From Ariolimax columbianus (lineage: Eukaryota > Mollusca > Gastropoda > Stylommatophora > Arionidae), in contig JAVGWX010000014.1 of NCBI GenBank assembly GCA_036924085.1, forward strand, positions 40,481,556-40,545,555: a DNA stretch of 64,000 nucleotides. The letters are read 5' to 3'. The notes beneath the pieces were generated by a model. It did not search any database and was not told where the DNA came from. It worked only from the letters and a program-made list of their open reading frames with translations. The position numbers and the translations under genes were made by a program. Below, piece by piece: positions 3,297 through 10,024 of the stretch; position 1 is the stretch's first letter, and every line of letters begins with the position of its first letter.

Positions 3297-3322
3297 TTCT
3301 TCTTCTTCTTCTGCGTACACAG

Positions 3323-6300
3323 TCAGACAGTAACCATTATTTTTTCGAAAAAAGCGGCGGTCATCCTGAGACTCTCGCCACTACCATAGAGCTTGTCTTG
3401 CAGTTCCACTGGCAATGGCCACATCTGCTCTCTCTGATCCTCGTATGTCGGGCAGTTCTGCAGCAGATGTTCAGTGGTCATTTTACCAGTACCGCACGGG
3501 CATTCGTCGGTACACCCTATCTTCAATTTGTTGAAGAGGTGGTACCTCAGTCTGTTGTGGCCAGTGCGAAGTCTGAAGACAACGACCTGCTCTCTTCGGT
3601 TCAACTGGTAATAGGCATCGTTTTTGGTGTAACCAGTATGTTCGGTTTCCCATTTGGACATGTACCTGGCTTTGATAAGCCGTTTTGACTCTTCGTACGT
3701 CATACTGGTATCTATTTGTGGTAGCCTTGCACCTTCTTTTGCCAGTCTGTCTGCCTCCTCGTTGCCTTGGATGTTGCAGTGTGACGGAACCCACTGTACC
3801 ACTACCCTTTTTGGTGCGGACTGTTGGCACAGTTTGCAGAGTGCTGCTCTTAAGTCATTAAGCTCAGTGTTTTTCTGGCTTTTTAGCGCTGTGACTACTT
3901 CGAGAGCATCTGTCAGCAGGACTATATGGCTCTCATTTTCACTGTGTGTTGCCATTTCTTCCACTGCCGCCCTCAGTGCCTCTGCCTCTGCTCTGAAATT
4001 GCTCGTGTACTTACCAGTAGCGAATGACAGTGTTATTTTTCTGCCATTTGGTAGGTTCAGGAATGCTCCTGCCCCTCCGTTCTGTGTAGTGTTTGTTACA
4101 GAACCGTCGGTGTATGCATGGGTCCAGTCCATGCTTGGGTAGCTTTTCGTTATGAAGCTTAGGGTAGTGTCTCTCCTTTCTTTTTCGGTCTGGCAGTTTT
4201 TGTTTGCAATACCTGGTATATTTTCTACCACCTCTGGCAATATATCCTGCCTCCAAGTAGGTTTTCGTACAGTATTGATGGGTTTTGGTGTTGTTAGTGC
4301 GTTTATGGGATCTTCGTGCATCTTTGCTTTGGCTATTTCTGCAAAGTTTCTCCGCTTTAGTTTCCCAGTTCCCAGATTGTTTAGCCTCTGGTACATTGGA
4401 TGGTCCGTCAGTCTTCGGAGTTTCTCTGACTGCAGCTGGGCTCTGCAGTCTCTTCTGTCGGTCATGGATTGCAGTTTTGTAATCTTTTCAAGTTCTACAA
4501 TTGGCGTTGACTTCATGCCACCTGTTATGATTCTCATGGCTTGGTTTTGAAGTTTGTTAACTTTATCGAAGTTCGCCTTCGCTGCTGTTGTCCATGCCGC
4601 GATGCCATACTCGAGAACTGGTCTCACTCTTCCAGTGTACAGTTTCTTTAGTATGCCTTCGTCTGCTCCCCAGCTTGTGCCAGCAAGTTTCCTCATGATC
4701 GCCATTCTTTCTCTGGCTTTCATTCGGTTTCTCTCAATCTGACTTTTCCATGTCATGCGCCGATCAAATGTGACTCCCAGATAGGTTGGGTTGTCGTTTG
4801 GCTGCAGGATTTTGCCATTTAGGCTTAGTTTGGTACTTTGGGGTTTTAATGAGAGCGAGAATATTGTGCACGTGGTTTTCTCCTCGTTTATTTTGACCAG
4901 CCATGAGTTCGCCCACTCTTCCAGCGATGTTAGGGCCGTTTGCATCCGATTTCTTGCTATGGTGAGATTCTTTTCAGAGGTCCACATAGCCAGATCGTCT
5001 GCAAACATTGAGCTATGGACTCTTCTTGGTATATTCTCTGTAATATCGTTTATATATACCAGGAAGAGTGTGGGTGACAGTACTCCCCCTTGGGGTACTC
5101 CCTGCTCGAGTGTCCCCTTTTTGCTCATCTGCCCTTGTACTTGGACTCTGGCCGTTCTTTGTTTGAGGTAGTGGTTGATCCACTTGTACATCTTCCCACA
5201 AACATCACTTCTTCTTAGCTTGACTCTAAGTCCATCCTTCCAGACTTTGTCAAATGCCTTTTCCAGATCCACCCAAACAGCTACTGTGTGTTTCTGTGCC
5301 TGGTAGGCATCTTCTATCTCTTGGGCTATGAGGATGACCTGGTCCTCAGTGGATCTGTGCTGTCTAAAGCCGGCTTGCTGTGGAATTAGTATTCGTTTTT
5401 CTTCCAGATGCCACATCAGTCTGGTGTTTATCATCCGTTCCATCAGCTTGCCGACACAGCTCAGTAGGCTTATGGGCCTGTATCCATTCGGATCTGTTTT
5501 GTCCTTTCCTGTTTTTGGTACTGGTACCAGTATTGCATCTTTCCATGCCTGGGGTACAATACCCCTTTTCCAGCTTTGGTTCAGGACTGATAGTAGTTTT
5601 TTCTTCGCTGTTTGGCCCAGCCCCATCAGCATTTCGTTTGTTATCCCGTCTTTTCCGGGAGATTTCCTTCTCTTTAGTGTTCTCATAGCCTCTTCCATTT
5701 CGCGCATTGTTAGTTTGGCCATCATGTGCTCTTCAGGAGCCGTATTTATGTTTTCGTGCCCCTTTAGCTCTTCGCTAATGTCTGTATGCTTATCTGCAGG
5801 GACCTCGATGTGGTTTGCTCTGGCATAGTGATCGACAAAGGCGTTTGCGGCTTTCTTACCTGTGATCAAGTTCTCGCCTTGCTTGATAGTAATTTGTTTA
5901 TTTGACGGGGTTTCGTCGTTCATGGCTCTGACTAGCTTCCATAGCTTGTTCCCTTCTTTGTCCAGGTTTAAACTTTCCGTTTTATTTTTCCAACTTTCTC
6001 TTGCTGTTTGCTTGAGAGTGTGTTTGTACTTCGCCGCGGCGGCTTTGAGGGCGATGTTTGCCTCCACGGATTTTTCTCGTTCTGCCATGTTCCTAGCATT
6101 TGTTACTGCATCTTCCACTTTCTGTAACTCATCATTCCAGTAGGGCTTATAGTTTTTCCTAGCTCCTCTTGGGATGGTTTCAGTGGCGGCTTGCATTATT
6201 GCCTTGCTTAGGCTCTCTACCATGGGCTTCATTTTGGTGTTTCGTGTGTTGATGGTTTCACACAGCCCATCTGTCAGGATTGCAAATCTGTCCCAGTCGG

Positions 6301-8860: not shown

Positions 8861-10022
8861 TGCAACCATACTTCCCCCGGAACCCAAACACTTTGGTTTC
8901 CCGGAAGCTGCCCGCAGAGTCATCGAAGCAACTCCTGCGGATCGCTAGTCGGCATCGTTTATGGTCAGAACTACGACGGTATCTGATCGTCTTCGCGCCT
9001 CTGACTTTCGTTCTTGATTAATGAAAACATTCTTGACAAATGCTTTCGCAGTAGCTCGTCTTGCGGCGATCCAAGAATTTCACCTCTAACGCCGCAATAC
9101 GAATGCCCCCGTTTGTCCCTGTTAATCATTACCTCCAGTTCCGAAAACCAACAAAATAGAACCGAGGTCCTATTCCATTATTCCATGCACCATTATTCAG
9201 GCAGCCGAGGCCTGCTTTGAACACTCTAATTTTTTCAAAGTAAACGCGCCGGCCACCCAGGACGCTCAGCGAAGAGCACCCGTGGGAGAGAGCCGGCAGA
9301 CGGTAGGGCAGGAGACAACGGGCAGTGAACCGGCGCGAGCCGGACCGCCCGCCTGCGCCTGAGATCCAACTACGAGCTTTTTAACTGCAACAACTTTAAT
9401 ATACGCTATTGGAGCTGGAATTACCGCGGCTGCTGGCACCAGACTTGCCCTCCAATAGATCCTCGTTAAAGGGTTTAAAGTGTACTCATTCCAATTACGG
9501 GGCCTCGAAAGAGTCCCGTATTGTTATTTTTCGTCACTACCTCCCCGTGCCGGGAGTGGGTAAGTTGCGCGCCTGCTGCCTTCCTTGGATGTGGTAGCCG
9601 TTTCTCATGCTCCCTCTCCGGAATCGAACCCTGATTCCCCGTTACCCGTTACAAACATGGTAGGCATGTCACGTACCATCGACATTTGATAGAGCAGACA
9701 TTTGAAAGATGCGTCGCCGGCACATGAGGCCATGCGATCAGCACAAAGTTATCCAGAGTCACCAGTGGGGACGCCGCAACCCCGCGAGGGGAAACGACGA
9801 TTGGTTTTGAACTAATAAAAGCGCTCTTTCCGCGAGGGTCGGAGCTTGGTAAGCATGTATTAGCTCTAGAATTGCCACAGTTATCCAAGTAGGATCGTGT
9901 CATCTAAGGAACCTCGACTGATTTAATGAGCCATTCGCGGTTTCACCGTGAGACAGTGTGAACTTAGACATGCATGGCTTAATCTTTGAGACAAGCATAT
10001 GACTACTGGCAGGATCAACCAG
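8787..10022 (-). rRNA. 18S rRNA: 18S rRNA fragment, 5' two-thirds (pseudogene)
   Basis: The reverse complement begins CTGGTTGATCCTGCCAG, the eukaryotic 18S 5' terminus. It proceeds through the decoding-region segment CAGCAGCCGCGGTAATTCC, a GC-rich V4 region (about 9241-9360), AGGTGAAATTCTTGG, GATACCGTCGTAGTT and GGAATTGACGGAAGGGC, then ends after GACTCAACACGG. That is about 1.24 kb of a usual ~1.8 kb; the 3' domain is missing. No 5' ETS precedes it, so the template looks like processed 18S rather than pre-rRNA. One apparent change is gtaagttgcgcg where most animals have gtaatttgcgcg. The V4 text suggests a mollusc, perhaps a caenogastropod. As an isolated fragment it should not yield functional rRNA. 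Confidence 0.96.
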
Positions 10023-10024
10023 AT

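What the first reader, a model, noticed from the sequence alone, without database searches (positions are those of the whole stretch)
3297..10024. Retrotransposon fused in cis to near-intact 18S rRNA ending at the mature 5' terminus
On one strand the order is 18S nt ~4 to ~1240, then the element leader, then an intact endonuclease/RT/RNase H ORF, then a (GAA)n tail. The 18S starts at CTGGTTGATCC with no 5' ETS, pointing to processed 18S rRNA as template. The junction lies inside an 18S-like block that also occurs twice more in the element leader. The simplest reading is that the RT copied its own RNA to this block, switched by homology to 18S rRNA and ran to its end. 5' rRNA chimeras in other elements and 18S-targeted LINEs (R7, R8) are known; a leader with homologous modules that could promote switching is, to my knowledge, not described.
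Basis: partly seen in the sequence, partly recalled or inferred. Interest (0 to 1): 0.92.

Follow-up and report, generated by a model that had tools for sequence, protein, structure and literature searches.

The report
Jumping gene headed by ribosomal RNA
In this likely snail genome, a young family of jumping genes carries the first two thirds of 18S ribosomal RNA, preceded in its complete copies by what is likely the ribosomal spacer, as a common front end, so it is probably copied from transcripts of ribosomal RNA genes; the copy in this window is the odd one out, starting at the 18S end and flanked by a 1.77-kb duplication.

Summary
In detail: a 6,728-bp LINE insertion (3297-10024, minus strand) runs 18S nt 2-1240, leader, intact endonuclease/RT/RNase H ORF, (GAA)n. 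In the host genome I read 31 other copies or leader relatives: 28 carry an 18S head, each preceded by likely 5' external transcribed spacer (ETS); 3 are truncated inside the 18S. Most complete copies begin at one nucleotide (ATCTGGGG), next to 11-13-bp target duplications. Between older and younger copies the 18S stays nearly unchanged (0.76% pooled) while ETS (4.1%) and adjoining leader (7.9%) drift. ETS variants are unlinked to ORF variants. The leader also holds 28S-derived modules and the 28S 3' end, which decay. Best reading (0.5): RNA is co-transcribed from LINE copies sitting in ribosomal RNA genes, so each new copy takes along a fresh pre-rRNA 5' end. Main rival: repeated RT switching onto pre-rRNA. 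No rDNA-resident copy was seen; requests for the real rDNA did not complete. The window copy alone lacks the ETS, starts at the 18S 5' end (a processing site) and has a 1,768-bp target duplication confirmed by empty sister units.

The parts
3297..10024 (-). whole LINE insertion of this copy (element coordinate e1 = 10024, e6728 = 3297)
   Evidence: 5' and 3' ends abut the target duplication; sister units lack it
8786..10024 (-). 18S rRNA nt 2 to about 1240, starting at the mature 18S 5' end
   Evidence: conserved positions; an 18S head with this start in 28 of 31 other copies read
8654..8849 (-). module 3: 18S block (8849-8786), short-deletion joint, 28S-like piece (about 8741-8712)
8471..8653 (-). 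module 2: 18S block (53/63 identical) plus 28S-like piece (about 8546-8513)
8235..8470 (-). module 1: 18S block (59/63 identical) plus 28S-like piece (about 8360-8332)
7752..8234 (-). 28S rRNA 3'-terminal segment ending at Rfam LSU position 3399 of 3401, decayed (72 of 98 conserved positions read)
7238..7751 (-). leader tail with no Rfam match
   Evidence: no match there at E 0.01
3323..7237 (-). open frame, 1,304 aa: AP-type endonuclease, reverse transcriptase, RNase H
3297..3311 (-). (GAA)n 3' tail
1529..3296 (.). target duplication, copy next to the element 3' end (1,768 bp)
10025..11793 (.). target duplication, copy next to the 18S end (1,769 bp)
50490..51190 (+). 5'-truncated sister copy of the same family, 15 differences in 702 bases compared, 11-bp target duplication ATCTCGGTTCT, empty site in unit A near 13180-13192

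Best explanation
The 18S stretch is a common front end of a young LINE family whose complete copies begin with about 630 bases of likely 5' external transcribed spacer followed by 18S nt 1-1240, and the family's RNA is probably a co-transcript made from ribosomal RNA genes that carry the LINE inside the 18S. Shown in the copies read: the common head, its 5' terminus next to short target duplications, the near-constancy of the 18S between drifting flanks, and the unlinking of head and ORF variants. Inferred: the 5' terminus is the RNA polymerase I start; source copies sit in rDNA units, where concerted evolution keeps their 18S and ETS fresh while the LINE drifts; full-length RNA is reverse-transcribed at nicked target sites and leaves dispersed copies that lack the rDNA promoter. 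The 18S/28S modules and the 28S 3' end are likely relics of an older event in which the RT jumped from LINE RNA to the 3' end of 28S and on to 18S; they are not refreshed. For the window copy the RNA was probably cut at the 18S 5' processing site (or the RT moved onto mature 18S), and second-strand cleavage probably fell 1.77 kb from the first nick.
For: Head: 28 of 31 other copies read start with ETS-like sequence plus 18S, the other 3 being truncated at e260, e419, e1116 (20 fetched, 9, 2). 5' terminus: ATCTGGGG in 15 of 17 ETS-bearing copies (one of the 15 reads ATATGGGG; the other two start 8-16 nt inside) and in 6 of 8 of L035-L042; L050, whose ETS is 18-22% different, has the same motif at the expected place. 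11 of those 17 have 11-13-bp target duplications. 18S constraint: pooled over L034-L042 substitutions are ETS 210/5128, 18S 80/10578, adjoining modules 232/2926; the 100-base bins either side of 18S nt 1 have 5.6% and 0.4%. Within 18 young copies the 18S has 0 shared variants, the ORF 23. Opposite trend of the unrefreshed 28S end: LSU bits 154.9 (L050), 124.4 (L049), 72.3 (L042), 67.2 (L034, L024), 68.4 (window). Unlinked ETS and ORF: 134 of 184 site pairs fail the four-gamete test; 561 of 1000 shuffles give as few or fewer. Mature 18S should be the commonest free acceptor (recalled), yet only 1 of 29 copies with an 18S start begins there, which favours co-transcription.
Against: No LINE inside an rDNA unit and no complete 18S gene was seen; the searches meant to find them did not complete, and none of the ten loci returned by the 18S search is a plain 18S gene. 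'ETS' and 'transcription start' are inferred from position and rate alone. Divergence rises gradually over e1176-1330 rather than stepping at the joint e1239, as switching inside the block would give. L050 joins the 18S at about nt 1620, not 1239, so more than one site or event is needed. ETS versus leader sites show 0 of 40 incompatible pairs: the five leader variants are rare and sit on the commonest ETS type. The nine loci are the best 18S matches, which biases their 18S downward; L049 and L050, chosen lower in that list, show the same contrast (18S 3.5 and 5.0%, ETS 12.8 and 18-22%). The 20 copies are the best leader matches, so they are biased to young copies.
Confidence: 0.5

Rival explanations
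1. Head renewal by the reverse transcriptase: LINE RNA is made elsewhere, and during reverse transcription the enzyme switches by 18S homology onto pre-rRNA (rarely mature 18S, as in this copy) and runs to its 5' end.
For: Template jumps are visible: L034 has a second ETS joined to 18S nt about 561, L026 joins nt 560 to 1224, L050 joins a module at about nt 1620; head and ORF variants are unlinked; divergence rises gradually across the 18S block. A LINE (Zorro3) clone that switched to 35S rRNA is reported in PMC3510499 (passages).
Against: It must be nearly obligatory: none of the 20 copies starts headless in the modules. Mature 18S should dominate as acceptor (recalled), yet 28 of 29 copies with an 18S start carry the ETS. 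The joint GG|CCAACACTG is inherited in 9 of 9 of L034-L042.
Confidence: 0.28
2. Ordinary dispersed LINE lineage that captured a pre-rRNA 5' end once and now transcribes it from an internal promoter; the 18S is kept by selection on the element.
For: Joint and 5' terminus are stable; high copy number (1,847 first-look candidates, 40 scored); 10 of 18 aligned copies, the window's included, keep the ORF segment uninterrupted.
Against: 18S changes about 5 times less than ETS and 10 times less than the adjoining leader, with rRNA-type pairing kept (8 of 168 paired columns non-standard against 54 of 202 in the 28S end, marks counted by eye); ETS unlinked to ORF; a second 18S breakpoint in L050.
Confidence: 0.15
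3. One reading: a one-off switch from the LINE's own RNA to processed 18S rRNA made this copy.
For: This copy alone of those read starts at 18S nt 2 without ETS; homologous blocks exist.
Against: An 18S head with the same start is in 28 of 31 other copies read.
Confidence: 0.02
4. Assembly or haplotype artefact.
For: The 1.77-kb duplication could look like an unmerged haplotype.
Against: No N in the window; both duplication ends abut the element ends; both copies share a unit-A-specific 8-bp absence; the same head recurs on many contigs.
Confidence: 0.03

Closest known systems
R1/R2-type rDNA-resident LINEs (R2, R8, R9)
   Same: LINE tied to rRNA genes and, in the preferred reading, co-transcribed with pre-rRNA; R8 lies in 18S and an R2 lineage gained a 28S-derived stretch in its 3' UTR (PMC5035012, passages)
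   Different: here AP-type endonuclease and RNase H, dispersed copies in non-rDNA sites, and the pre-rRNA 5' end is carried along as a common head; rDNA residence not shown
Human L1/rRNA chimeras (PMC13174262, passages and section 11)
   Same: rRNA 5' of a LINE in one insertion, mostly same orientation
   Different: there single events, 18 loci with 28S pieces of 50-482 nt, '18S' not found in the main text; here about 1.24 kb of 18S plus ETS common to a family
R2 template jumps to U12 snRNA and tRNA, and R2/R1 hybrids with an ITS1-derived piece (PMC3414825, passages)
   Same: foreign cellular RNA at the LINE 5' end
   Different: sporadic 5' additions, not a renewed common head
L1 insertions with kb target duplications in repair-deficient cells, 5 bp to 5.3 kb (PMC5223499, passages)
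   Same: kb-scale target duplication
   Different: natural insertion here; 11 of 17 relatives read have 11-13 bp
Gastropod I-superfamily LINEs (Ingi, Nimbus; PMC11203168, passages)
   Same: endonuclease, RT and RNase H in one ORF; Batillaria, a source of a relative here, is rich in Ingi
   Different: no rRNA head is mentioned in the passages read; clade not tested here

Membership tests
rDNA-resident LINE (R1/R2-like way of life) | copies inserted in rRNA genes | not tested
   searches for the real rDNA did not complete
rDNA-resident LINE (R1/R2-like way of life) | rRNA part of the transcript kept as functional rRNA at the source | tested here: met
   18S 0.76% against 4.1% and 7.9% in the flanks
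R2 clade | restriction-like endonuclease | tested here: not met
   Exo_endo_phos (AP-type) domains instead
L1-type one-off RNA chimera | foreign RNA joined in a single insertion only | tested here: not met
   28 of 31 other copies read share the head
LINE using target-primed insertion | short target duplications, 3' repeat tail, 5' truncation | tested here: met
   11-13 bp in 11 of 17 copies; truncations e260, e419, e1116
I superfamily (Ingi/Nimbus-like) | AP endonuclease, RT and RNase H in the ORF | tested here: met
I superfamily (Ingi/Nimbus-like) | RT phylogeny | not tested
   no named reference set; clade name recalled

The most novel reading that the evidence does not exclude
A ribosomal-RNA-gene parasite that broadcasts itself: LINEs lodged in 18S genes ride RNA polymerase I transcripts, and every dispersed copy is a fossil of the pre-rRNA molecule it was copied from, its 5' end marking the transcription start or, as in this window, an rRNA processing cut.
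Probability: 0.42. Interest if true: 0.9.

Novelty: new variant of a known kind. Interest (0 to 1): 0.78.

Why it matters
LINE-rRNA fusions are known as sporadic accidents, and rDNA LINEs are known as residents. A high-copy family that carries a constantly renewed pre-rRNA 5' end would link the two. It would also give a genome-wide archive of past ETS variants and rRNA processing ends, and it includes a natural kb-scale target duplication. The rows listed by my ten answered library searches name no such family; several of those lists were capped, and most subscription papers are not in that library.

Tried and rejected
One-off switch at the 18S block: rejected once the family copies were read. 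Until then it was my working view. Chance for the 18S match: excluded. Assembly artefact: see rivals. Relatives in viral contigs and genome contigs: none by tblastn. 18S patterns in viral contigs: no match in two scans. Named clade by NCBIfam or PDB sequences: only general RT, RNase H and endonuclease matches, such as group II intron RT, L1 and R2 proteins. One search's 28S count had one misregistered line; one search corrects it (72 of 98). Long target duplications in other copies: L020 about 644 bp (99.7%); L021 about 962 but in a repeat array, so unresolved; L025 69; L026 9; L015 none and L030 only 7.

Not done: an RT phylogeny, a structure prediction, any search of reads.

Full report
What is in the window. 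The minus strand of 3297-10024 reads 18S nt 2 to about 1240, three modules, a 28S 3' end, a 514-base tail, a 1,304-codon frame and (GAA)n. Below I count element bases e1 = 10024 to e6728 = 3297. Each module joins an 18S block (from 18S nt 1177 in this copy's count) with a piece of 28S around CTAATAGGGAACGTGAGCTGG. In the four module slices tested against the 28S piece of contig L001, at most 1 of 2,000 shuffles reached the observed score, against 1,987 of 2,000 for an unrelated slice. The nearest named relatives of the ORF come from Littorina and Batillaria, hence the guess of a caenogastropod host.

Insertion site. The window holds tandem sister units. Unit C (45937-50489) and, at the 3' side, unit B (34357/34358) show the site without the insert. 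The 1,768 bp next to the element are duplicated on both sides with one mismatch and one gap, and both copies lack the same 8 bases that units B and C have. A truncated sister copy at 50490-51190 has an 11-bp duplication and an L1-like element in unit B has 17 bp, so the long one is not a property of the place. Kb-scale duplications are reported for L1 in repair-deficient cells (PMC5223499, passages).

The family. When the host genome search answered (2.29 Gb, 401 contigs), 40 scored hits of 1,847 first-look candidates matched the whole leader query at about 100%, the window's own included. I fetched 20 of the other 39, the best-scoring ones. Seventeen keep the 18S start and three are truncated inside the 18S (L026 also lacks e561-1223). 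All 17 continue upstream of 18S nt 1 with 619-637 bases of common sequence ending CGTCTCCGACAGAT. Fifteen of the 17 begin at ATCTGGGG (one of them reads ATATGGGG), and 11 have 11-13-bp duplications. Nine further loci from the 18S search (40 scored of 87 candidates, the window included; ten loci returned, the window's among them) also have this sequence upstream of the 18S, in L037 only 150 bases of it. I call it ETS by position and by its rate of change; no rDNA reference was available.

The 18S stays fresh. In L034-L042 substitutions against young copies pool to 0.76% in the 18S, 4.1% in the ETS and 7.9% in the adjoining modules. The 100-base bins either side of 18S nt 1 have 5.6% and 0.4%, and the rate rises gradually over e1176-1330. 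These loci were selected for 18S similarity. Two copies from lower in that list show the same contrast: L049 18S 3.5%, ETS 12.8%, 28S end 20%; L050 18S 5.0%, ETS 18-22%, 28S end 26%. The 28S end behaves the opposite way: its Rfam score falls from 154.9 and 124.4 bits in L050 and L049 to 67-72 bits in L042, L034, L024 and the window; L047 has 67.7, and L044's 156.5 covers a longer, composite stretch and is not comparable. So the 18S is renewed or held at the source and the 28S is not.

Heads are exchanged. Among 18 aligned copies there are 8 usable ETS variants (3 of 11 dropped at the ragged 5' end), 5 in the leader, 23 in the ORF and none in the 18S. ETS-ORF pairs are incompatible in 134 of 184 cases, against 8 of 28 within ETS and 38 of 253 within the ORF; ORF-leader gives 1 of 115 and ETS-leader 0 of 40. 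Shuffling heads among copies gives a mean of 127.6, so no linkage of ETS and ORF is seen.

History. L049 has one module running straight into the 28S end (its joint has one G fewer), which looks like the ancestral form. L050 keeps 18S to about nt 1620 before its module and has ATCTGGGG at the expected start. L034 carries a second ETS joined to 18S nt about 561, and L026 joins nt 560 to 1224. Loci found by 5.8S put ITS and 5.8S upstream of the same kind of leader in L043, L044 and L047, with a more distant form in L045 and L046; in L048 a 5.8S lies about 320 bases upstream of an ETS-18S head. rRNA pieces have thus been attached more than once.

Mechanism. I prefer co-transcription from rDNA-resident copies (0.5): it gives one 5' terminus, a stable joint (exact in 15 of 17 and 9 of 9 copies), an 18S under rRNA constraint, ETS variety, and rare 5' ends at processing sites such as this copy's. 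RT switching onto pre-rRNA (0.28) explains the jumps and the gradual rise, but needs near-obligatory switching to a scarce precursor instead of abundant mature 18S. No rDNA-resident copy has been seen; requests that would have tested it did not complete.

This copy. It is the only one of 29 copies with an 18S start that lacks the ETS. A random truncation could fall anywhere in about 7.3 kb, so a 5' end within two bases of 18S nt 1 is unlikely to be chance, though it is one case.

Known or not. Sporadic LINE-rRNA fusions and rDNA-resident LINEs are known (PMC13174262, PMC3414825, PMC5035012, PMC3510499; passages, and section 11 of the first). For template jumping by an R2 RT I saw the abstract and outline of PMC8857657. 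A family with a renewed pre-rRNA head was not named in the rows listed by my ten answered library searches.

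Noticed in passing
29131-30418: An L1-like element in unit B (about 26962-33850, 17-bp target duplication) has its endonuclease region expanded into about 18 copies of a 71-bp unit, 96% alike, spanning the GDFN stretch; 71 is not a multiple of 3.
   Followed up: partly
1-64000: Three to four tandem sister units (starts near 1, 24599, 45937, 62716) differ by LINE insertions and serve as mutual empty sites.
   Followed up: partly
1905-2391: A 130-bp inverted repeat (99% arms) whose left arm is missing in units B and C.
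   Followed up: no
19895-21529, 42504-43055, 58851-59644: A 43-bp minisatellite of about 39, 13 and 19 copies at the same place of sister units; its long open frames are probably repeat artefacts.
   Followed up: no
L043-L048: 5.8S copies are dispersed (53,434 first-look candidates, 40 scored). L043 and L045/L046 share a 5' boundary GGTACCTGAGCG in likely ITS1, possibly another pre-rRNA processing end; L044 has a 28S-like segment upstream of 5.8S.
   Followed up: partly
L034, L026: 18S nt 560-561 is the landing point of two different jumps, possibly a fragment end or pause site.
   Followed up: no
L014: A copy truncated at e419 is joined upstream to another copy's leader piece e2376-2705.
   Followed up: no
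L002: A bacterial MAG contig (PIVK01000085.1) holds an animal-type 18S start, an apparent host contaminant.
   Followed up: no
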